DNA of 22,027 nt, from positions 1 through 22,027 of IMG/VR virus record IMGVR_UViG_3300028188_000029, one strand, 5' to 3'. A program made the position numbers and the translations under genes. This DNA comes from a virus. A model generated the notes under the pieces. That model did not search any database. It worked only from the letters and a program-made list of their open reading frames with translations, and had not been told where the DNA came from. This document shows, in pieces, positions 1,249 through 20,928 of the stretch (the first letter of the stretch is position 1; every line of letters begins with the position of its first letter).

Positions 1249-1560
1249 TTAATCTTGATCTAAAAATAATAGCAATTTGGTTCTAATATCTTTTAATGAT
1301 ATATTCTCGAACCATTCACCACGAACATGGTTTTTTTGGAATTGCAGATGTAGATACTTCTCTGCCTTATGTGGGTTTTTTCGTTCATCTAAGTATTCTA
1401 ACTGCAATGGACAAGGGTTACCAGTTTGCAACGCTTTCATCCTACGTTCTATATTGTTAGTAACCCCTATTTTAAATAAATTACCCGCTGATATCACATA
1501 AAGATGGGTGTGCTTAGACGGTTTCTTTACTCTAATTTTTATTTCAGCATAATTTTTCAA
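1249..1560 (-). CDS. Small GIY-YIG-type nuclease (T5orf172/MUG113 group)
   Basis: The 103-residue protein is a single compact domain. THLYVISAGNLFKIGVTNN (18-36) supplies the GIY/YIG-like strands, ERRMKALQTGNPCPLQL the following helix with the basic residue, and KAEKYLHLQF plus RGEWFENIS the conserved Glu and C-terminal motif. This is the layout of the T5orf172/MUG113 branch of the GIY-YIG nuclease superfamily, often found as free-standing mobile genes in phages. No extra DNA-binding domain is present. The first usable start is TTG at 1560, directly after the TAG stop of the 777-residue gene (TAGTTG), so translation probably depends on coupling. It sits between a structural-type gene and gp32, a typical place for a homing gene. 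Target and activity are unknown. Confidence 0.7.
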   Translation of the reverse strand: MKNYAEIKIRVKKPSKHTHLYVISAGNLFKIGVTNNIERRMKALQTGNPCPLQLEYLDERKNPHKAEKYLHLQFQKNHVRGEWFENISLKDIRTKLLLFLDQD

Positions 1561-4195: not shown

Positions 4196-5581
4196 CTAAA
4201 ACATAATAAATGGCATTGGGGATATTGAAACATCCCCATGATCTTGCATTTGGGCACTAAGTCCAGAATCATACGTTTTTAGTTGTTGCATCATCCGCAC
4301 AATTATCAACAATGACATCACCAAGTCATCATTTTCCCCTTGCTTTGCTTCGTAACTAACACCCTTGCTAATAAAAACCTTTAATTCACTTATTAACGGT
4401 TTGCTATAAATGGTTAATCTATCTGATTCAACTAACGATTTTAACTTAGAACATGCTTCTGTTTTTGTGGTTTTATTTGTATTGAATCCTTTCCTTGCTA
4501 TTCTAGTACTACGTGTTTTTTTTGTTTCTGATACAAAAATACCACCCATATTCTCTTCACCAAATTCATCAATGGAAATTAATGCAGCTTCACCCACCGT
4601 GTTATTCTCAACACTAAAATATATATTGTTTTTATTGACAGGGGTCTTTTCATCAATATAATGCATTATATCACTCATTATCTTTATCTGTGCTGGAATA
4701 GGTGTCATATTATGCTTCCATTCTGCAACTTGTGTTGTGGTATTAGCCTCAAACACTTGTATACCTGCATAATCCCCACCAGTGCCTATACTCGGATCTA
4801 ACGATATGCAATATATAGTATCTTTTCTGGGTTCTTTATACCACCTAACTTGTCCTTGCATTCTGATTGGGTCAATGCCTTGCATCTCTGATAAAACCAT
4901 TGAATTTATTAAAGTTTCTTCAAACGACACAAATTTACAGTTGTGTTCACGTTCGAATTGATCAGGTTCCATTTTAGCCCTTTCTTTTTTCTCCCATGCA
5001 GCATCACGGTCAGGATGATCACTCCATATCGCTGAATATGGTCTATATCCATTAATTCCCAATTCGGTTGGGTTTCCGTATTCATCCTCTTGCTTGTTTG
5101 CCCCTTTCCATATAGTAGCGAACTGATCTTCATCATTATTGGGTGTACTAGTAATCATAGATTTACCACCAGTTGACAATGTAGGCGAAATAGAAGTCCA
5201 AAATAATTTGGCAATATTTGGTGGCACGAAGGAAAATTCATCTAGATACAAACAATTGTGAACAATTATATTATTAGCCACAAACGAATTCGTATCCTTG
5301 ACATTTAACAAATCCGAGACTTCTTGCACACCGACATATTCAGTGCCAATACATCTCTCTTGACCTGACGCAGTTTTTATATTATCACCTATTGAAATAT
5401 CATTAAACTCAACCCATTCATTTGATGTGATAGAAAAAAATAAATGATCTTGCGTGCATTCTATCGATGATTCTTCTAATAATAACCTATATGTTTCTTT
5501 TACACTTACAGATATTCCTTCAAAATCTTTAAATCCATCATCTGTTAGTACTTCGAATCTACTATTTTTTTCTACGACCAT
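4196..5581 (-). CDS. gp17: Intein C fragment fused to the C-terminal half of large terminase gp17
   Basis: Residues 1-109 are the C part of a split intein. Block B is CTQDHLF with T43 and H46. The C-terminal blocks are DTNSFVANN and IIVHN, ending at H108-N109. Cys110 is the +1 extein residue. Residues 110-461 are terminase: CLYLDEFSFV with Walker B D114 and catalytic E115, the coupling motif ITSTPNN (about 143-149), then the RNase H-like nuclease with acidic D262 (SLDPSIG), E325 (SVENN) and D418/D419 (ENDDLVMSLL). The protein should trans-splice with the product of 6405-7019 to give gp17, which pumps DNA into the prohead and cuts concatemers. ATG 5581 overlaps the 3' end of the homing endonuclease gene and has an AGGAAAGG site just upstream. 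No conserved terminase block appears to be missing. Confidence 0.9.
   Translation of the reverse strand: MVVEKNSRFEVLTDDGFKDFEGISVSVKETYRLLLEESSIECTQDHLFFSITSNEWVEFNDISIGDNIKTASGQERCIGTEYVGVQEVSDLLNVKDTNSFVANNIIVHNCLYLDEFSFVPPNIAKLFWTSISPTLSTGGKSMITSTPNNDEDQFATIWKGANKQEDEYGNPTELGINGYRPYSAIWSDHPDRDAAWEKKERAKMEPDQFEREHNCKFVSFEETLINSMVLSEMQGIDPIRMQGQVRWYKEPRKDTIYCISLDPSIGTGGDYAGIQVFEANTTTQVAEWKHNMTPIPAQIKIMSDIMHYIDEKTPVNKNNIYFSVENNTVGEAALISIDEFGEENMGGIFVSETKKTRSTRIARKGFNTNKTTKTEACSKLKSLVESDRLTIYSKPLISELKVFISKGVSYEAKQGENDDLVMSLLIIVRMMQQLKTYDSGLSAQMQDHGDVSISPMPFIMF
5255..5581 (-). other. Split intein C fragment (109 residues)
   Basis: The fragment begins at its own start codon and ends at the Asn before the extein Cys (codon at 5252-5254). 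It carries blocks B, F and G and contains no endonuclease domain. Starting so early in the fold, it holds most of the HINT domain. Confidence 0.87.
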
Positions 5582-5816
5582 AACCTTTCCTATATCCTTC
5601 TGGAATTACTTCCCCTTTTTTCAGCATCTTTACTTCCAATGTGCTAGCTGAATGGATATAAAAACATCCTTTATTATTAGGTCCTCTTGCTTTGGCGGCT
5701 AAAGACATTTTTTTCTTAGCTTCCGCACTTCTCTTCATTCCTTTGTGTTTTTCTGCTGTTTTTCTTATTTTCTCAGGATCTGTATTTTGTGGGTTTCTTC
5801 TGCTAATACCTACCAA
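5562..5816 (-). CDS. GIY-YIG homing endonuclease, C-terminal part (NUMOD-type) after a frame break
   Basis: The frame is open upstream of the TTG at 5816 and continues to about 5910. The upstream codons encode REILAISAKERFSG and TQEHRKKISDALVGISRRN, typical NUMOD3-like DNA-binding repeats. It then runs KAEKHKGMKRSAEAKKKMSLAAKARG and ends in KGYGRRKK. It is the natural continuation of the ORF 5881-6396, displaced by +1. Deleting one base from the A4 run (plus strand 5904-5907) would restore one 277-residue protein. The TTG is therefore unlikely to be a true start. The last codons overlap the start of the intein-C/terminase gene. Confidence 0.6.
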   Translation of the reverse strand: MVGISRRNPQNTDPEKIRKTAEKHKGMKRSAEAKKKMSLAAKARGPNNKGCFYIHSASTLEVKMLKKGEVIPEGYRKGYGRRKK

Positions 5817-5880
5817 TGCATCTGAAATCTTTTTTCTATGTTCTTGGGTTTTAGGGACACCACTAAACCGCTCCTTGGCA

Positions 5881-6396
5881 CTAATTGCAAGAATTTCTCT
5901 TAATTTTATTCTTATGTTCTTCAGATAGTGTCCATTGAGATCGTTCTTTTGATAGTAATTCTTTGCGTAATATACCAGCTTCAGTATCCCAGTATTCGTT
6001 TCTTTTTTGTTGTTCTTCAGGGCTTCTAACTCTTCCAGACAATTTTTTAGATATTAGTTTTTTAGTAGCCGATGTATGTTTCTTTCCATAAAAACCATTA
6101 TCTTCCCCAAATAATATAGGTGTTTTGGATGCTATTATATTATAATATTCATCTGATTCAGCTACATTCCGATTTTGTAATTCATCATATTCTGTATCAG
6201 ATAACTCAGTAGCCGTTGCACACCAATGAAGTATACTGCGTTCAAAGCTGTTAGTTCCATATTTGTTAATTGCATTCTTAATTACTTTTCCAGAGCCCCA
6301 ATAAAAATCATCAAAGGTAGATGATGCCCGCATTCCTACATATTTCTTATTATTAATTTTATTTGTTATTAAATAAACATATCCATAATTTTCCAT
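5881..6396 (-). CDS. GIY-YIG homing endonuclease, catalytic N-terminal part
   Basis: GYVYLITNKINNKKYVGMR (5-23) is a clear GIY-YIG motif with catalytic Arg23. FYWGSGKVIKNAINKYG and ELSDTEYDELQNRN (Glu72) complete the nuclease domain of about 80 residues. After it come NUMOD3-like DNA-binding repeats (GEDNGFYGKKHTSATKKLISKKLSGR, and WTLSEEHKNKI just before the break). The gene begins 8 nt after the terminase/intein-N stop with a strong GGAGAAAGT site. It lies exactly between the two intein halves, where a LAGLIDADG or HNH domain would sit inside a contiguous intein. It probably moves the intein by cutting intein-free terminase genes, which is inference. The frame ends early at TAG 5881 because of a +1 shift, so the product may be inactive as sequenced. 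Confidence 0.82.
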   Translation of the reverse strand: MENYGYVYLITNKINNKKYVGMRASSTFDDFYWGSGKVIKNAINKYGTNSFERSILHWCATATELSDTEYDELQNRNVAESDEYYNIIASKTPILFGEDNGFYGKKHTSATKKLISKKLSGRVRSPEEQQKRNEYWDTEAGILRKELLSKERSQWTLSEEHKNKIKRNSCN

Positions 6397-6404
6397 ACTT
6401 TCTC

Positions 6405-7019
6405 CTATTGCATACCTCTATTTAACTGGATAAGCTCGTTAATGGTAATTTGCATAACATTTCCAGTTTCTTTATCTCGTACTGTAACTTTGCTATTCTG
6501 CGTTGAAACACATGTTATAGATAGCCCGCGCCCTGTGTTCTCTGTGGTTGCTTGAGAAATTATTCTGCTACCATTATCGAATTCAATTGAACCTTTGTTG
6601 TAACTGGTAGCACCAGCCCTGATATGATCTGGACATAATTCGTATGCATAACGAATACGTTGCATAATTTCTAAAGCACCATCGTATTTGTGTGCTGCAA
6701 TTAAAATAGTCGATGATGGTTTAAACATTGCAAACCACAACAAATAGCCAGACGCTGCTGTAGTTTTTCCCAATTGCCTGCCAAGTAACGCTATCGAATG
6801 ATCATAGTTATGATATGTATCTACTAATCCTATCTGAAATGGATAAGGATCATACATTAGTTTTCCCTTAGTGGGATGCTGTATCCAGAAGAAGTTCTTC
6901 ATAAAGTAATGTGGTCCACTTACTGGATTAACACACTCAACAAAGTCAGTAATTTGGCCATCGGTGTATGCCGTTTTGACATGTGCTTTTTTAGTTAATA
7001 CACCATCCAATGATTTCAT
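6405..7019 (-). CDS. gp17: Large terminase gp17 N-terminal ATPase half fused to an intein N fragment
   Basis: Residues 1-169 are the terminase ATPase N-terminus. YDPYPFQIGLVDTYHNYDHSIALLG leads into the Walker A GRQLGKTT (80-87), followed by SSTILIAAHK and SIEFDNGSRIISQATTENTGRGLSIT, the conserved approach to Walker B. At Cys170 the terminase sequence stops and a 35-residue intein N fragment (CVSTQNSKVTVRDKETG... to Gln204) follows, ending in TAG. The rest of the ATPase resumes at 5254 on a separate gene. Unspliced, neither half has a complete ATPase site. The start lies 12 nt after the radical SAM stop, and that gap is GTAAATAACCGC, with no Shine-Dalgarno sequence. Confidence 0.9.
   Translation of the reverse strand: MKSLDGVLTKKAHVKTAYTDGQITDFVECVNPVSGPHYFMKNFFWIQHPTKGKLMYDPYPFQIGLVDTYHNYDHSIALLGRQLGKTTAASGYLLWFAMFKPSSTILIAAHKYDGALEIMQRIRYAYELCPDHIRAGATSYNKGSIEFDNGSRIISQATTENTGRGLSITCVSTQNSKVTVRDKETGNVMQITINELIQLNRGMQ
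6408..6512 (-). other. Split intein N fragment (35 residues)
   Basis: The fragment has the nucleophile Cys as residue 1 and a block A pattern, with beta strands VTVRD and VMQITINEL around a Gly turn. It is far shorter than the roughly 100-residue N fragments of DnaE-type split inteins and close in size to the AceL-TerL type (about 25 residues). The block B His is on the C fragment instead. Confidence 0.85.
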
Positions 7020-7031: not shown

Positions 7032-7448
7032 CTAACCACCACAATTATCATTGCAAATTACTAGCTTTCCATCTTCAAATGTGTTTTTAGTCCAAGTATT
7101 AGATACATTAGAAAACCATTCAATACATTGTCCTATCGAATACTTAATAGCATTATTATACTGGATTAGATGCTTAAATTGATTGTTTGCTGCTTGATGG
7201 TAAATGCCATTGCCATATGTTTTTGGTTCAAACCCCAAATAGCAACATGGATAAACATCTCCCAATGATGATATATATATTTCATTGGTATGTTTAATTT
7301 CACAGTCTATTTTTCTAGGAGTTTTTTTATCCACTATATCTTCCAACAGGACTTCACTGGTTTTTCGATGTTCTATTGAGTAAGGATAGTTAACATCTTC
7401 ATTATCTTGTATCAAATGAATCTGTCCCCCCCCTCTTATTATGCACAT
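7032..7448 (-). CDS. Radical SAM/SPASM protein, C-terminal part after a frame break
   Basis: This frame carries the auxiliary cluster region. RKIDCEIKHTNEIYISSLG and DVYPCCYLGFE form the typical SPASM/twitch signature, followed by GQCIEWF and a terminal CNDNCGG, seven Cys in all. In the SPASM families these bind one or two extra [4Fe-4S] clusters. The apparent start at 7448 lies inside the upstream ORF and has no ribosome binding site. The real relation is continuity with 7402-8031: removing one G from a G8 run (C8 on the plus strand, 7426-7433) gives one 332-residue protein reading NKRGGQIHLIQ across the join. The stop lies 12 nt before terminase. Confidence 0.65.
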   Translation of the reverse strand: MCIIRGGGQIHLIQDNEDVNYPYSIEHRKTSEVLLEDIVDKKTPRKIDCEIKHTNEIYISSLGDVYPCCYLGFEPKTYGNGIYHQAANNQFKHLIQYNNAIKYSIGQCIEWFSNVSNTWTKNTFEDGKLVICNDNCGG

Positions 7449-8031
7449 TCAAATCATGTCTTGTATTATGCACTAAATTAAACGCACTGAATCCTATATT
7501 TTCAGTTATTTGGCGGATTTCATTGCGTTGTGTTTTATTATAAGCAAAATCAATTGTACTACAAATAGCTTTACCACCTGCATTTATAAATACTTCGGCA
7601 TTTTTTAAAATAACATTAAGAGATGTATTTTGTCTATATATTACATGTGTGTCATATAACCCATCAATACAGAACGATATAGTTATTCCTAATTTACCTA
7701 GTCTTTCCCAGAAATCAGTTCTTCTCCCTGAACCATTAGTAGATACAAATACAGCAATATTGCCATTTTGTTTTAATAACCATTCTATAATATCGGCACT
7801 TTCTGGATTCATTATAAAATCACCAAAGTTACCATTAATTCTTATCCGTTTTATTTGGTCAAGGAAATTATTATCAAATATTGACTGGACATCAGCCAAT
7901 GTTAGGTTACGTTCAATATATCCATCATTGTATGGCTGTCCATAAAAATTACGAGGACATCCAGAGCATCGCGCATTGCACAATGATGAAAGTTCAAGGT
8001 GGATACGGGCAATATCATTAACTAGTAACAT
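7402..8031 (-). CDS. Radical SAM protein, catalytic N-terminal part
   Basis: HLELSSLCNARCSGCPRN contains the radical SAM CxxxCxxC motif (C18, C22, C25) that binds the [4Fe-4S] cluster used to split S-adenosylmethionine. IRINGNFGDFIMNPE takes the GGE-motif position, and VFVSTNGSGRR and ISFCIDGL are the next barrel strands, as in SPASM-type radical SAM enzymes. The frame ends shortly after the G8 run where the C-terminal domain continues in +1. The substrate is unknown. Family members modify peptides, sugars or other small molecules. It follows the 392-residue possible glycosyltransferase after a structured spacer and terminator, and its start is TAAATA-ACCAT-ATG without a Shine-Dalgarno sequence. 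If the break is real, the protein lacks its auxiliary clusters. Confidence 0.82.
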   Translation of the reverse strand: MLLVNDIARIHLELSSLCNARCSGCPRNFYGQPYNDGYIERNLTLADVQSIFDNNFLDQIKRIRINGNFGDFIMNPESADIIEWLLKQNGNIAVFVSTNGSGRRTDFWERLGKLGITISFCIDGLYDTHVIYRQNTSLNVILKNAEVFINAGGKAICSTIDFAYNKTQRNEIRQITENIGFSAFNLVHNTRHDLNVHNKRGGTDSFDTR

Positions 8032-8157: not shown

Positions 8158-9336
8158 TTAAACTTTTTCTTTCATTTTGCCCTCAATTATATCATTGGCT
8201 CGTTTAACCGTTCTTACATCGATCCCACCAGTTACTGCCTGTATTAAATTGCTACCAACTAAATCACTAAATTCGTTGCTTAAAAATACATCGGGGTTTT
8301 CATTCAACCATCGGATGGCATCTATCATTGCCGTGTATCTTTCTTCATGATCTTTAATAAAATCAAACTGCTGTAAATGTGTCGGTAACAAATTCCACGC
8401 AGTATAAAAATTATTTTCATTCAGTAATGTGTTAATGTTTGATCCACCGAATGCAAAAGGTAAACTTTTAGCATAAAAACACTTGAGGGTTTTTTCTGTT
8501 ATGGTTAACTCATCGTTCTGCCATGCTGTTTCTGGGTATATCACGCAAGAATTGACAAAGTATATTGGTAAAACAGAATATCCAGGTGGGATTTTTCCAA
8601 ACTTCGCATTGATGCCTACATTTAGTTGGGTATCGTAATATGACTGCTGCCTTCCATCCGTTTCATCAACCCACACATCAATTTCATCTCTGTATTTAGA
8701 TTCCAACATACACCTAAAAGTGGTATCCTCATCGGTCTCCCAATACGAATGATTTGTGTTAACTACCTCCGATGCGTAAGTCGAATTAAAAATATTAACA
8801 TTTGTATTGTCTTTTATCTTATTAAAAAAATGATGCCTCCATGTTCTGTTTTGACCGTTAATTGCAATTATAGTTGGTTCTTTTTTTATAGTGCTAGCAT
8901 TCTTGCAATTTTCATAAAAATGAGGATAAAATTTACTAGTGAAATAGTCATTGGTATTTGATGCATCCGCCACAGAAGAAATTACTTTGTCGTATAATAA
9001 ATGCGTCTTACTTAAAATACTCTCAACCACATAATAAACATTATCAAAATCCTGAACTTTGTGCATGGCATCAGTCGAAACCCACAACGGTTCACTAGCA
9101 TTGCTTACGAATATTAAATCGAACTTTTTAATATACTCATTTGGTATATCATCGCTAGGCATACTATCAAACAGAATATTAATATCTGCATTCTCGTTAA
9201 AATCACTGAAATTTATTTGCCAATCTGATTCATAGCTATTATCACAATGTAGATGCTGTCTATACGCATACAATGCGTCAAATATCTGCAAAGAAACACT
9301 GGTATTGGAAACCTGCACGTTGATTACTCTATTCAT
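8158..9336 (-). CDS. Unknown 392-residue protein, possible glycosyltransferase
   Basis: The protein has no signal peptide or membrane segment. The N-terminal half has alternating strands and helices (INILFDSMP, FDLIFVSNAS). The C-terminal half contains NSCVIYPETAWQN and then LTITEKTLKCFYAKSLPFAFGG (about residues 277-298). That resembles the donor-binding segment of fucosyltransferase/exostosin-like enzymes, where TEK...ALxAGxxPI is conserved. The resemblance is by eye and weak, so the function is tentative. A sugar-transfer role would fit a neighbour of a radical SAM enzyme in a virion gene cluster. It is preceded by a 6-bp hairpin and TAAATA-TCACG-ATG without a Shine-Dalgarno sequence, and followed by a structured spacer and terminator. 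Confidence 0.7.
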   Translation of the reverse strand: MNRVINVQVSNTSVSLQIFDALYAYRQHLHCDNSYESDWQINFSDFNENADINILFDSMPSDDIPNEYIKKFDLIFVSNASEPLWVSTDAMHKVQDFDNVYYVVESILSKTHLLYDKVISSVADASNTNDYFTSKFYPHFYENCKNASTIKKEPTIIAINGQNRTWRHHFFNKIKDNTNVNIFNSTYASEVVNTNHSYWETDEDTTFRCMLESKYRDEIDVWVDETDGRQQSYYDTQLNVGINAKFGKIPPGYSVLPIYFVNSCVIYPETAWQNDELTITEKTLKCFYAKSLPFAFGGSNINTLLNENNFYTAWNLLPTHLQQFDFIKDHEERYTAMIDAIRWLNENPDVFLSNEFSDLVGSNLIQAVTGGIDVRTVKRANDIIEGKMKEKV

Positions 9337-9341
9337 CGTGA

Positions 9342-9347
9342 TATTTA
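9342..9347 (-). promoter_or_regulatory. TAAATA box exactly 5 nt before ATG 9336
   Basis: The minus strand reads GATAAATATCACG then ATG. It abuts the hairpin at 9349-9366. Confidence 0.45.
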
Positions 9348-9348
9348 T

Positions 9349-9366
9349 CGATGAGAACCTTCATCG
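9349..9366 (-). other. Small hairpin just before the TAAATA box
   Basis: CGATGA pairs with TCATCG around a 6-nt loop on the minus strand. There is no T run, so termination is unlikely. It occupies most of the 43-nt gap after the 88-residue gene. Confidence 0.4.
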
Positions 9367-9379
9367 GTAAAGTTGTGTC

Positions 9380-9646
9380 CTAAACTTTAAATCGTACTAC
9401 AACTTCACCACTCATAGTTTCATCAATATCCCATTGAACTGGTGATGATTCTAACCATTCGTTGAATTCTGCATATGCATCGGGTGCATTAGCATTATGT
9501 TTCGGGTTGCGCGGTGGGATATTAATATCAATAGTATTATTCGAAGAATATCTTTCGTTGCCGCCGATGTGCCTTGGTGCTTCATTTAATGGTTGGTATG
9601 GATCTACTGTTTCCATCAATTGCTTCATATTATCATGGTTATTCAT
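9380..9646 (-). CDS. Small unknown acidic protein (88 residues)
   Basis: I do not recognise it. The N-terminal half is polar and probably flexible (DNMKQLMETVDPYQPLNEAPRH, SNNTIDINIPPRNPK). The second half looks folded, with AYAEFNEWLESSPVQWDI and a final strand VVVRFKV. It begins 2 nt after the TAA of the 104-residue gene (GATTAAATATG), so it is translated from the same message, probably by coupling. It belongs to a run of six small unknown genes between the terminase small subunit and the 392-residue gene. Some may be minor virion or regulatory proteins. Confidence 0.65.
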   Translation of the reverse strand: MNNHDNMKQLMETVDPYQPLNEAPRHIGGNERYSSNNTIDINIPPRNPKHNANAPDAYAEFNEWLESSPVQWDIDETMSGEVVVRFKV

Positions 9647-15573: not shown

Positions 15574-17133
15574 CTATTTCCTCCATATATACTTGGAACT
15601 TCCACAATCATATATCCGTAAATACCCCTCTGATAACCTCAATTCCCTCTCAGTATCAACACAACCACTTGGTTTCCTTAATGCATACCTATGAATTCTA
15701 TTCATCTCATTAGGCAATATATACCAATAATTGGGAACAGTGTCCTTGGTATGATCAAATCCTAACTTTTCGTAGAATGGAGAAACAGCACTCCATCGCC
15801 TATCAGCATATGAGATTACTGTTTCTGTATTATGATGGCGTGTAAAATATTTGAACAATTTAGATGCACCTCCAACCACAGTAACCCCAGATTTATTACA
15901 AAAACGGTTCAGTTCCCAATCAGTAATCCCTTTGCTAATATCCCCATTCAAAAAAGTCATAACAGCTACCAATTCAGAATCATTCCATAACCCTAGATGC
16001 ACATTTGCACGACCTGATCCCTGTATATGATATCTCTTTATGAATGCATTAGCCTCCGTTGGTTTAATCGTTTTGACTTCGCATTTCCTAGCATATATTC
16101 TTTTATTAATACCCAACATATTCTTTAATCGGTCTTTTACTATGGTAGGCGTATTCTCATACTCATCTTCAAATACATGAATTAGCCTCACACCATTTTC
16201 TAAACACTTATTGGTCTTATCAAGATGATAGTTTTTATCCTTCCTTAATTCATTATGCCAATACAAGCCATTATATTCAATTGCAACCTTGTACTCAGGA
16301 AGATAGATATCCAACTCTAGTGGCGGTATTATACTCCGGTCGTTTCTTGATACATTGGTATACTGTTCTAACCAATCAGCTATTTCTCTTTCTGCTTTGC
16401 TTGTGCCAATCAAGGGTGGGTAACATTTTGGGCACAATTCATAGGTAATCTTACTCTTTGATGCATATTGATATGTTCTGTTAAAAATGGTATCGCATTG
16501 ATTGCACTTAACATCCATGTATGTATCTTCGATTTTGATAACTGAGTACCCATATTCTCCCATTCGCAATACTGCTTCTTTTTGTGACTGTGCCGTGCGA
16601 ATTTTGTGATGTTCAATGGATTTTTTGGAAATTAGTTTCTTCGACTCATCCGAATGTGTTTTACCACGAAAGAATGCTAGGTCATATCCTCTATCCTTTT
16701 TTGTCTGAATAGCTTTCATTACAGACTCGGTGGTTATTGCCTGATTCGCCCTAGCTTTTTTTATTTTGTCTCTCACCTCTGGTGATCGCTTTGAACCTAC
16801 ATTCGGATGAGTGCCATTCTCTCTCCAAACTCTATTTCGTGCTAATGCTTTCTCTGATAGAATCTTCTTCTGTTCAGCCGACAGTGCAATCCCCTTATTG
16901 TGTGCTACTCTTCCTTTGTTTGATTCAGAAATTCTTTGTTTAGCTGCCTCGGTGTGCTTCTTACCATAATTTGGATTGTTCTTTCCTGAAACGCGATCAC
17001 GTATTCGTTTCTTTAGTTCATCGGGAAACATCTCACCATATGTATTTTTGTATTCATCACTTGATATATTATGACTTTTTAAGTGCTTTCCTGTTATTGC
17101 CTTGAATTCTTTCCCACATACTCCACATTTCAT
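15574..17133 (-). CDS. EDxHD (Vsr-like) homing endonuclease with zinc fingers and NUMOD repeats
   Basis: The 519-residue product counts from ATG 17133, which has an AAAGGA site. The TTG at 17160 is less likely. Residues 3-21 form a Cys2His2-like finger (CGVC...HLKSH). Residues 48-175 hold NUMOD3-type DNA-binding repeats (NPNYGKKHTEAAKQRIS, RGKTHSDESKKLIS). CNQC and CPKC at 210-237 form a zinc ribbon. The nuclease domain is Vsr/EDxHD-like: SKAEREIADWL, LELDIYLPEYKVAIEYNGLYWHNE (D275, E286, H293), LDKTNKCLENGVRLIHVFEDEY. This family includes I-Bth0305I and was described with fractured genes and split inteins. A C-terminal domain (346-475) with FIKRYHIQGSGRANVHLGL and VVGGASKLFKYF is often attached to such enzymes. 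It lies between the sheath and tube genes. Codons are intact, so it may be active. Confidence 0.85.
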   Translation of the reverse strand: MKCGVCGKEFKAITGKHLKSHNISSDEYKNTYGEMFPDELKKRIRDRVSGKNNPNYGKKHTEAAKQRISESNKGRVAHNKGIALSAEQKKILSEKALARNRVWRENGTHPNVGSKRSPEVRDKIKKARANQAITTESVMKAIQTKKDRGYDLAFFRGKTHSDESKKLISKKSIEHHKIRTAQSQKEAVLRMGEYGYSVIKIEDTYMDVKCNQCDTIFNRTYQYASKSKITYELCPKCYPPLIGTSKAEREIADWLEQYTNVSRNDRSIIPPLELDIYLPEYKVAIEYNGLYWHNELRKDKNYHLDKTNKCLENGVRLIHVFEDEYENTPTIVKDRLKNMLGINKRIYARKCEVKTIKPTEANAFIKRYHIQGSGRANVHLGLWNDSELVAVMTFLNGDISKGITDWELNRFCNKSGVTVVGGASKLFKYFTRHHNTETVISYADRRWSAVSPFYEKLGFDHTKDTVPNYWYILPNEMNRIHRYALRKPSGCVDTERELRLSEGYLRIYDCGSSKYIWRK

Positions 17134-17205
17134 ATTATGTCCTTTACATAGATATAGCAATTAAACCACATGACACTATTTAGGCAAAGGGAGAGATGAT
17201 GTAAT

Positions 17206-20515: not shown

Positions 20516-20540
20516 AGATTATGGTGATTTTTGCACTTTT

Positions 20541-20560
20541 AAAAACCCTTTTAAAGGGTT
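20541..20560 (-). terminator. Rho-independent terminator between the neck and sheath genes
   Basis: The minus strand reads AACCCTT, TTA-type loop, AAGGGTT, then TTT. Read on the plus strand, the same palindrome is a hairpin 18 nt before the HNH-type gene and could fold in its leader if transcription starts upstream. Confidence 0.65.
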
Positions 20561-20564
20561 GCCA

Positions 20565-20570
20565 TAAATA
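20565..20570 (+). promoter_or_regulatory. Late-type box CATAAATA 7 nt before the plus-strand gene
   Basis: CATAAATA-CTTGATT-ATG lacks a Shine-Dalgarno sequence. It is the plus-strand counterpart of the TAAATA boxes on the other strand and gives this antisense gene its own transcription signal. Confidence 0.45.
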
Positions 20571-20577
20571 CTTGATT

Positions 20578-20928
20578 ATGAAAGATAAAAGACCATTGTG
20601 TAACAGGTGTCAGCAACGACCATGCGCTATAAACTATTACGATAATGATGGGAACGTACATTACCGAACTAAATGTGACCCTTGTGCTACAAAAAAGAAA
20701 CCCTCATTGAATCCCAAATGGAGGAAATCAGGTTATAGGAAGAAAAAAGTATGTGATAAGTGTGGGTTCAGATCAGTACACAATGAACAAATTGTTGTAT
20801 TTCACATAGATGGCAATCTAAATAATACTGTAATTAGTAATTTAAGGTCAGTATGCCTTAATTGTATAATAGAAGTGCAGAAAGAAGATTCACTTTGGCG
20901 ACAAGGGGATCTAATTGCGGATTTCTGA
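20578..20928 (+). CDS. Small HNH/zinc-binding nuclease-like protein on the plus strand
   Basis: The 116-residue protein starts at ATG 20578 (MKDKRPLCNRCQQRPC). The upstream ATG 20521 would read through the palindrome and is less likely. CNRC and CDPC (early) and CDKCGF with CLNC (late) look like zinc-binding pairs. The C-terminal part follows the HNH layout: VVFHIDGNLNNTVISNLRSVCLNC, with the His, the Asn before NL, and the C-terminal CxxC knuckle. Such proteins are frequent in marine T4-like phages, where they may be free-standing endonucleases or DNA-binding regulators. It is the only convincing plus-strand gene, convergent with the neck gene (25 nt between stops). Confidence 0.75.
   Translation: MKDKRPLCNRCQQRPCAINYYDNDGNVHYRTKCDPCATKKKPSLNPKWRKSGYRKKKVCDKCGFRSVHNEQIVVFHIDGNLNNTVISNLRSVCLNCIIEVQKEDSLWRQGDLIADF

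What the first reader, a model, noticed from the sequence alone, without database searches (positions are those of the whole stretch)
4196..7019. Fractured large terminase gene: split intein with a free-standing GIY-YIG endonuclease between the halves
Two separate genes encode the two terminase halves, each carrying intein sequence at the break. Cys170 starts a 35-residue N fragment, and a 109-residue C fragment ends His-Asn before Cys110. Read together, the exteins give GRGLSIT-CLYLDEFSF, a correct terminase Walker B region. Between them lies a GIY-YIG homing gene with its own ribosome binding site. Fractured genes with split inteins and a free-standing endonuclease are known from environmental phage sequences, where the reported enzyme was EDxHD-type. 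A GIY-YIG enzyme in this position in terminase is, as far as I know, unusual. Genome packaging would depend on protein trans-splicing.
Basis: partly seen in the sequence, partly recalled or inferred. Interest (0 to 1): 0.92.

Follow-up and report, generated by a model that had tools for sequence, protein, structure and literature searches.

The report
Split-intein terminase with broken homing endonuclease
This phage encodes its DNA-packaging motor protein as two separate genes, each carrying half of a self-splicing protein that should join them, with a homing-endonuclease gene between the halves; the arrangement is real but belongs to a large family already present in cultured phages and metagenomes, and in this contig the endonuclease gene itself is broken.

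Summary
TerL is encoded as two ORFs carrying a 35-aa IntN and a 109-aa IntC. The exteins join without a missing residue (GRGLSIT|CLYLDEFSF), and 78 of 80 close TerL relatives are contiguous there. Three near-identical contigs show the same split. The IntC profile matches the consensus atypical split intein CatC (E 1.6e-20); the predicted fold matches VidaL and Cat.

One correction: the GIY-YIG ORF is a fragment. The window lacks 79 nt present in the other three contigs, where the gene is an intact 304-aa ORF. The claimed rarity does not hold. Fractured TerL with an endonuclease between intein halves occurs in cultured phages (Yersinia TG1, E. coli HY03, Providencia PSTRCR_127, Campylobacter CP21) and dozens of IMG/VR contigs, many with GIY-YIG enzymes, several at exactly this site. 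A fractured gene with GIY-YIG is published (AceL NrdHF).

A further result: the endonuclease's C-terminal module (NPEKIRKTAEKHRGMKRS-like) is shared by GIY-YIG and HNH enzymes and lies next to TerL in every IMG/VR locus retrieved (about 100 distinct). This points to a recognition module dedicated to TerL.

New member of a known kind. Trans-splicing is very likely but untested.

The parts
6513..7019 (-). TerL N-extein, 169 aa, with Walker A (GRQLGKT); ends TENTGRGLSIT
   Evidence: Pfam Terminase_6N E 3.2e-9; PHROG terminase large subunit E 9.4e-45
6405..6512 (-). IntN, 35 aa CVSTQNSKVTVRDKETGNVMQITINELIQLNRGMQ and stop codon; Cys1 nucleophile
   Evidence: homologous IntN in L286 at the same point (69% over the junction)
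5881..6396 (-). Homing endonuclease ORF, N-terminal part (171 aa): GIY-YIG catalytic domain and NUMOD3; frame ends early because of a 79-nt deletion
   Evidence: SegE_GIY-YIG E 7.9e-10, NUMOD3 E 2.7e-5; intact 304-aa gene in L082-L084
5899..5917 (-). Deletion junction: 79 nt present in three sister contigs are absent here
5562..5909 (-). Remainder of the endonuclease gene, out of frame with its first part
   Evidence: NUMOD3 E 3e-4
5565..5804 (-). C-terminal module (SRRNPQNTDPEKIRKTAEKHKGMKRS...), inferred DNA-recognition module found only beside TerL in IMG/VR
5255..5581 (-). IntC, 109 aa, with block B T43-Q-D-H46 and C-terminal VHN109; its start codon lies inside the end of the endonuclease gene
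   Evidence: A5 profile to CatC 6dsl E 1.6e-20; AF2 pLDDT 87.8 and Foldseek matches VidaL, Cat, gp41-1; conserved columns
4196..5254 (-). TerL C-extein, 352 aa, begins Cys+1 CLYLDEF (Walker B) and includes the nuclease domain; plus stop codon
   Evidence: Terminase_6C E 1.2e-8, Terminase_6N C-terminal part E 4.5e-6
6397..6405 (-). Ribosome binding site of the endonuclease (GGAGAAAGT), touching the IntN stop codon
5582..5591 (-). Ribosome binding site of the IntC-TerL-C gene (AGGAAAGGTT), inside the endonuclease coding end

Best explanation
A T4-type phage large terminase gene broken by a naturally split mini-intein of the atypical (short IntN) type, with a homing-endonuclease gene between the halves. 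Steps: (1) the two TerL halves are translated from adjacent cistrons; (2) the 35-aa IntN binds the 109-aa IntC and completes a HINT fold; (3) class 1 splicing through Cys1, block B His46, Asn109 and Cys+1 joins TerL 169 + 352 aa and restores the Walker B region; (4) in intact copies of the element, the endonuclease cuts intein-free TerL alleles near the Walker B codons, guided by its C-terminal module, and the whole cassette is copied in. Steps 1 to 3 are inferred from complete, conserved sequence features; step 4 is inferred from gene context. In this contig the endonuclease is frame-broken, so this copy is probably unable to home and is kept because TerL needs the intein.
For: Split in four contigs with the same stop and start. 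Exteins join without gap or loss against contiguous relatives. All catalytic positions are present and conserved. CatC E 1.6e-20, gp41-1 and VidaL among the next; predicted fold matches VidaL, Cat and gp41-1. Cys at +1 where the contiguous relatives have Leu or Met, as splicing would require. Sister phages L286/L287 keep both intein halves at this site while their endonuclease is reduced to the C-terminal module: the intein outlasts the endonuclease. In Campylobacter Fletchervirus isolates the TerL-N+IntN and IntC+TerL-C genes are about 26 kb apart on opposite strands, which leaves trans-splicing as the plausible route to a whole TerL in propagating phages. The endonuclease module is beside TerL in 74/74 and 66/66 retrieved loci, against 2 of 77 generic GIY-YIG loci.
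Against: No splicing or cleavage was measured. The endonuclease frame is broken in the window itself. TerL halves might in principle assemble without ligation. The position of the window intein in the larger tree is poorly resolved beyond its pairing with L286.
Confidence: 0.93

Rival explanations
1. The two halves are not spliced; TerL works as a two-piece enzyme by non-covalent assembly, and the intein pieces are inactive remnants.
For: [quoted passage not shown] mentioned in PMC10448857).
Against: Every splicing residue is intact and conserved over very divergent relatives. The break lies four residues before the Walker B Asp, so an unspliced product would carry 35 and 109 extra residues at the ATPase centre. 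Inteins persist where the endonuclease has decayed.
Confidence: 0.04
2. The stop and start between the halves are assembly errors and the true gene is one contiguous intein with an in-frame endonuclease.
For: The window does contain one large indel relative to its sisters.
Against: Three independent contigs have the same ORF boundaries, and there the endonuclease is a full ORF in a frame of its own with its own ribosome binding site. Dozens of relatives share the fractured layout.
Confidence: 0.01
3. On the endonuclease only: the 79-nt deletion is an assembly collapse and the phage really has an intact endonuclease, so the element is fully mobile. (This does not compete with the splicing explanation.)
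For: 3 of 3 sister contigs are intact; the junction lies between short A/T-rich similar stretches.
Against: No reads are available here. Endonuclease decay does happen in this family (L286/L287; L206 with a fused remnant).
Confidence: 0.5
4. The insert is a group I intron or a mixed intron/intein, as proposed for phage IBB_35 TerL.
For: PMC3322345 described the similar IBB_35 locus as intein plus intron.
Against: No Rfam match in the window; the intein halves and the endonuclease ORF account for all of the sequence between the exteins.
Confidence: 0.01

Closest known systems
AceL-TerL, GOS-TerL and the consensus Cat-TerL atypical split inteins (PMC13014065, PMC11766414)
   Same: Split inteins of TerL with a short IntN (25, 37, 30 aa; here 35) and long IntC (104, 115, 104 aa; here 109); CatC is the best solved-structure match.
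   Different: Sequence only distantly similar (28% to Cat in the structure alignment). The insertion point here is Thr|Cys, four residues before the Walker B Asp; that AceL-TerL sits at a CEFL site is from memory and was not tested.
Fractured genes (Dassa et al. 2009, NAR 37:2560; paper not held, cited through PMC7891396 and others)
   Same: Conserved enzyme gene broken by a split intein with a free-standing endonuclease ORF between.
   Different: Half of the 2009 loci had Vsr-like EDxHD enzymes (from memory of the abstract); here GIY-YIG, broken in this contig.
AceL NrdHF (PMC7891396)
   Different: Class 3 intein, 98+48 split, in ribonucleotide reductase; here a class-1-type intein, 35+109 split, in TerL.
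TerL loci L200, L202, L208, L210 and sister L286/L287 (IMG/VR)
   Same: Same insertion site, same order TerL-N+IntN / endonuclease / IntC+TerL-C, same C-terminal endonuclease module.
   Different: In L286/L287 the endonuclease is reduced to the module; the catalytic domain of the window enzyme groups with free-standing GIY-YIGs rather than with L200-L210.
Yersinia phage TG1, E. coli phage HY03, Pseudomonas phage PspYZU05 (cultured Straboviridae)
   Same: Fractured TerL with an endonuclease ORF between split-intein halves.
   Different: Insertion site DE|CAF just after the Walker B acids; endonuclease is TnsA-like / phage endonuclease I-like.
Providencia phage PSTRCR_127 (cultured)
   Same: Fractured TerL with a SegE-type GIY-YIG between the halves.
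   Different: Different insertion site (KQEH|C).

Membership tests
Fractured gene with split intein and free-standing endonuclease | Host enzyme encoded by two ORFs whose products carry complementary intein halves | tested here: met
Fractured gene with split intein and free-standing endonuclease | Separate endonuclease ORF between the halves | tested here: met
   Intact 304-aa ORF in L082-L084; broken in the window itself
Fractured gene with split intein and free-standing endonuclease | Trans-splicing restores the enzyme | not testable with these tools
   needs expression
Atypical split intein (AceL-TerL/GOS-TerL/Cat/VidaL type) | IntN of about 15-37 aa with a long IntC (104-115 aa in the TerL examples) | tested here: met
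   35 + 109 aa; ranges from PMC13014065 and PMC11766414
Atypical split intein (AceL-TerL/GOS-TerL/Cat/VidaL type) | HINT-fold IntC homologous to the family | tested here: met
   CatC E 1.6e-20; Foldseek VidaL, Cat
Class 1 intein | Cys/Ser1, block B TxxH, penultimate His, terminal Asn/Gln, Cys/Ser/Thr+1 | tested here: met
   Cys170, T43QDH46, H108 N109, Cys110
Class 3 intein (as AceL NrdHF) | No nucleophile at position 1, internal Cys of the WCT triplet | tested here: not met
   Cys at position 1
GIY-YIG homing endonuclease, SegE/NUMOD3 type | GIY-YIG domain with conserved Tyr, Gly and Glu, followed by NUMOD3 | tested here: met
   (Y19, G21, E69 invariant)
GIY-YIG homing endonuclease, SegE/NUMOD3 type | Complete reading frame | tested here: not met
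   79-nt deletion in the window; intact in L082-L084
GIY-YIG homing endonuclease, SegE/NUMOD3 type | Cleaves the intein-free TerL allele | not testable with these tools
   needs a cleavage assay
Group I intron | Intron RNA structure | tested here: not met
   no Rfam match at gathering threshold

The most novel reading that the evidence does not exclude
The C-terminal module of this endonuclease (consensus NPEKIRKTAEKHRGMKRS plus about 20-60 residues) is a recognition cassette dedicated to the terminase gene: it is joined to two unrelated nuclease folds (GIY-YIG and HNH), travels mostly with split inteins at the Walker B codons of TerL, and in some phages sits just upstream of an intact TerL. 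Exchange of nuclease domains on one target-bound module would explain how different endonucleases keep re-invading the same essential gene.
Probability: 0.6. Interest if true: 0.6.

Novelty: new member of a known kind. Interest (0 to 1): 0.42.

Why it matters
The window adds a natural split intein with a short N fragment, a candidate for protein ligation work, and with its relatives shows three stages of one homing cycle at one codon position: intact endonuclease (L082-L084), frame-broken (window), nuclease domain lost (L286/L287). If the TerL-dedicated module is confirmed, it offers a simple way to study how endonuclease specificity is tied to one essential gene while the catalytic domain is exchanged.

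Tried and rejected
Sequencing-error origin of the split: rejected by three sister contigs. Intron: no Rfam match. One clade of same-site inteins including the window: neither shown nor rejected in the first set (p-AU 0.333); with more loci the window pairs with L286. AlphaFold of the 304-aa endonuclease from a single sequence was useless (pLDDT 49). IntN alone finds no meaningful PDB match, as expected for 35 residues. The Dassa 2009, Bachmann 2015 and Stevens 2018 papers are not held, so whether GIY-YIG or TerL were among the 2009 loci could not be checked. A radical-SAM frame break next to TerL was suspected to be an assembly error but is the same in L083 and L084. The module scan of GTDB genomes found no relative.

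Full report
What is there. The window is a 22-kb IMG/VR virus record from a T4-type myovirus whose TerL is, among isolates, nearest to PA5oct-like phages (62% and 48% identity of the two halves). TerL is encoded in two ORFs on the minus strand, 7019..6405 and 5581..4196. Pfam's Terminase_6N profile breaks between them. The first ORF ends with a 35-residue IntN from Cys170; the second starts with a 109-residue IntC ending His-Asn before Cys110. Joining the exteins gives a TerL of 521 residues with GRGLSIT-CLYLDEFSF; of the 80 best relatives in IMG/VR, 78 are contiguous there with no residue gained or lost.

The split is real. Three further contigs, L082, L083 and L084, are 99.2-99.9% identical to the window and have the same stop and start codons and an identical IntC. 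Both the endonuclease and the IntC ORF have clear ribosome binding sites.

The endonuclease is broken here. The window lacks 79 nt near 5899-5917 that all three sister contigs have. Since 79 is not a multiple of three, the 304-aa endonuclease of the sisters becomes a 171-aa fragment and an out-of-frame remainder in the window. The intact gene has a GIY-YIG domain of the SegE type and NUMOD3. Whether the deletion is biological or an assembly collapse cannot be settled without reads.

The intein. A profile of 14 IntC sequences finds CatC, the consensus atypical split intein, at E 1.6e-20, with gp41-1 and VidaL among the next. The AlphaFold model of the window IntC (pLDDT 87.8) matches VidaL, DnaB, Cat and gp41-1 inteins in the PDB. 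Cys1, block B TQDH, the conserved Asn103, His108, Asn109 and Cys+1 are all present. The +1 residue is Cys in the window although the contiguous relatives have Leu or Met there. Fragment lengths of 35 and 109 lie within those of the natural atypical TerL inteins AceL-TerL 25/104 and GOS-TerL 37/115 (PMC11766414; PMC13014065).

It is not rare. Searching with the IntC finds 77 GenBank phage records, mostly in TerL. Cultured Straboviridae such as Yersinia TG1, E. coli HY03 and Pseudomonas PspYZU05 have TerL-N / endonuclease / TerL-C in the same order; the TG1 enzyme is TnsA-like. Providencia PSTRCR_127 has a GIY-YIG enzyme between the halves. Campylobacter CP21 has a T5orf172 enzyme. A profile scan of IMG/VR yields several dozen more, inserted at several points: Walker A; six, four and one residues before the Walker B Asp; just after Walker B; and at a C-x-F-L-G-S motif further on. 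GIY-YIG enzymes lie between the halves in at least 11 distinct loci of that set besides the window. L200, L202, L208 and L210 have the window's insertion site and a GIY-YIG enzyme. TerL as an intein hot spot near ATPase motifs is known from mycobacteriophages (PMC5050341), and a fractured gene with a GIY-YIG enzyme is published (AceL NrdHF, PMC7891396).

Closest relatives and decay. L286 and L287 carry the same split intein at the same codon (IntN junction region 69%, IntC 59%, exteins 62% and 57% identical), but their endonuclease is reduced to the 75-aa C-terminal module. L206 has a contiguous intein with a GIY-YIG remnant fused in frame; L189 has the split intein with no endonuclease at all. 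The intein thus outlasts the endonuclease, as expected if TerL depends on it. In Fletchervirus isolates of Campylobacter jejuni the N half with IntN lies about 26 kb from the C half with IntC and on the other strand.

A TerL-dedicated module. The C-terminal part of the endonuclease (NTDPEKIRKTAEKHKGMKRS) recurs in the enzymes found at sites near Walker B. In the set selected by IntC alone, 8 of 10 endonucleases inserted within six residues before the Walker B Asp carry it, and 0 of 21 at other sites (Fisher p 6e-6; sites and families; shared ancestry is not corrected for). A scan of IMG/VR with this module returned 80 loci; all 74 tested new ones encode TerL beside or around it, and a second scan with a different starting sequence gave 66 of 66, including 26 with new module sequences. 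Of 77 loci found with the GIY-YIG catalytic part, only 2 showed weak TerL matches. The module is carried by GIY-YIG and by HNH enzymes. Of 86 loci, 54 are at exactly the window's site, 16 two residues before it and 4 three residues after it. In a few phages it stands just upstream of an uninterrupted TerL match (L280, L282, L285, L288, L311, L327, L333). It was not found in 84,980 prokaryote genomes. The one weak relative in isolates, Acinetobacter phages Henu6 and W16 at 40%, is not beside TerL in Henu6. The catalytic domain of the window enzyme groups with free-standing GIY-YIGs, not with the same-site enzymes, which fits exchange of nuclease domains on a conserved recognition module. The module resembles NUMOD3, so it is a specialised form of a known domain type; its DNA target is inferred from context only. 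Retrieved loci include near-duplicates, and only the best 80 per scan are kept.

Verdict. Observation confirmed; interpretation right in mechanism, wrong on rarity and unaware that the endonuclease is broken. New member of a known kind. The most interesting by-product is the TerL-dedicated module.

Noticed in passing
L264-L342, L344-L409; window 5565-5804: Endonuclease C-terminal module (NPEKIRKTAEKHRGMKRS-like) shared by GIY-YIG and HNH enzymes and beside TerL in every IMG/VR locus retrieved (74/74 and 66/66); no relative found in GTDB genomes.
   Followed up: yes
L166, L167, L178 with L256-L258 (Campylobacter Fletchervirus): TerL-N+IntN and IntC+TerL-C genes are about 26 kb apart on opposite strands, without an endonuclease between: a terminase that seems to depend on trans-splicing from unlinked genes in cultured phages.
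   Followed up: partly
L173 and L261 (Salicola phage SCTP-2): TerL seems to be in three pieces: an N piece ending in an IntN at Walker A far away in the genome, a middle piece with IntC and a second IntN at LLY|C, and a C piece not located here.
   Followed up: partly
L171 (Campylobacter phage CP21): TerL carries three inteins: one contiguous in Walker A, a fractured one at RGFS|C with a T5orf172 enzyme, and a mini-intein after the Walker B DE.
   Followed up: partly
L206:796-2364: Contiguous TerL intein at the window's site with a truncated GIY-YIG domain fused in frame: possibly a rejoined fractured gene.
   Followed up: no
L187, L191, L200, L202, L210 IntC ends: Many inteins at the window's site end in Gln instead of Asn before Cys+1.
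   Followed up: no
window 7032-8031 (-): Radical SAM and SPASM parts of one likely gene lie in two overlapping frames; the radical SAM ORF ends at the same place in L083 and L084, with a 9-nt difference beside it.
   Followed up: partly
window about 8166-9381: ORF 8158..9336 (392 aa, no family match) is missing in L084, which is otherwise nearly identical: a variable gene next to the packaging genes.
   Followed up: no
window 15574-17160 (-), 1249-1560 (-), 20521-20928 (+): Three more likely endonuclease genes in 22 kb: a 528-aa NUMOD3/PHROG 3339 homing endonuclease between tail tube and sheath genes, a T5orf172/MUG113 protein, and an HNH-like ORF on the opposite strand.
   Followed up: partly
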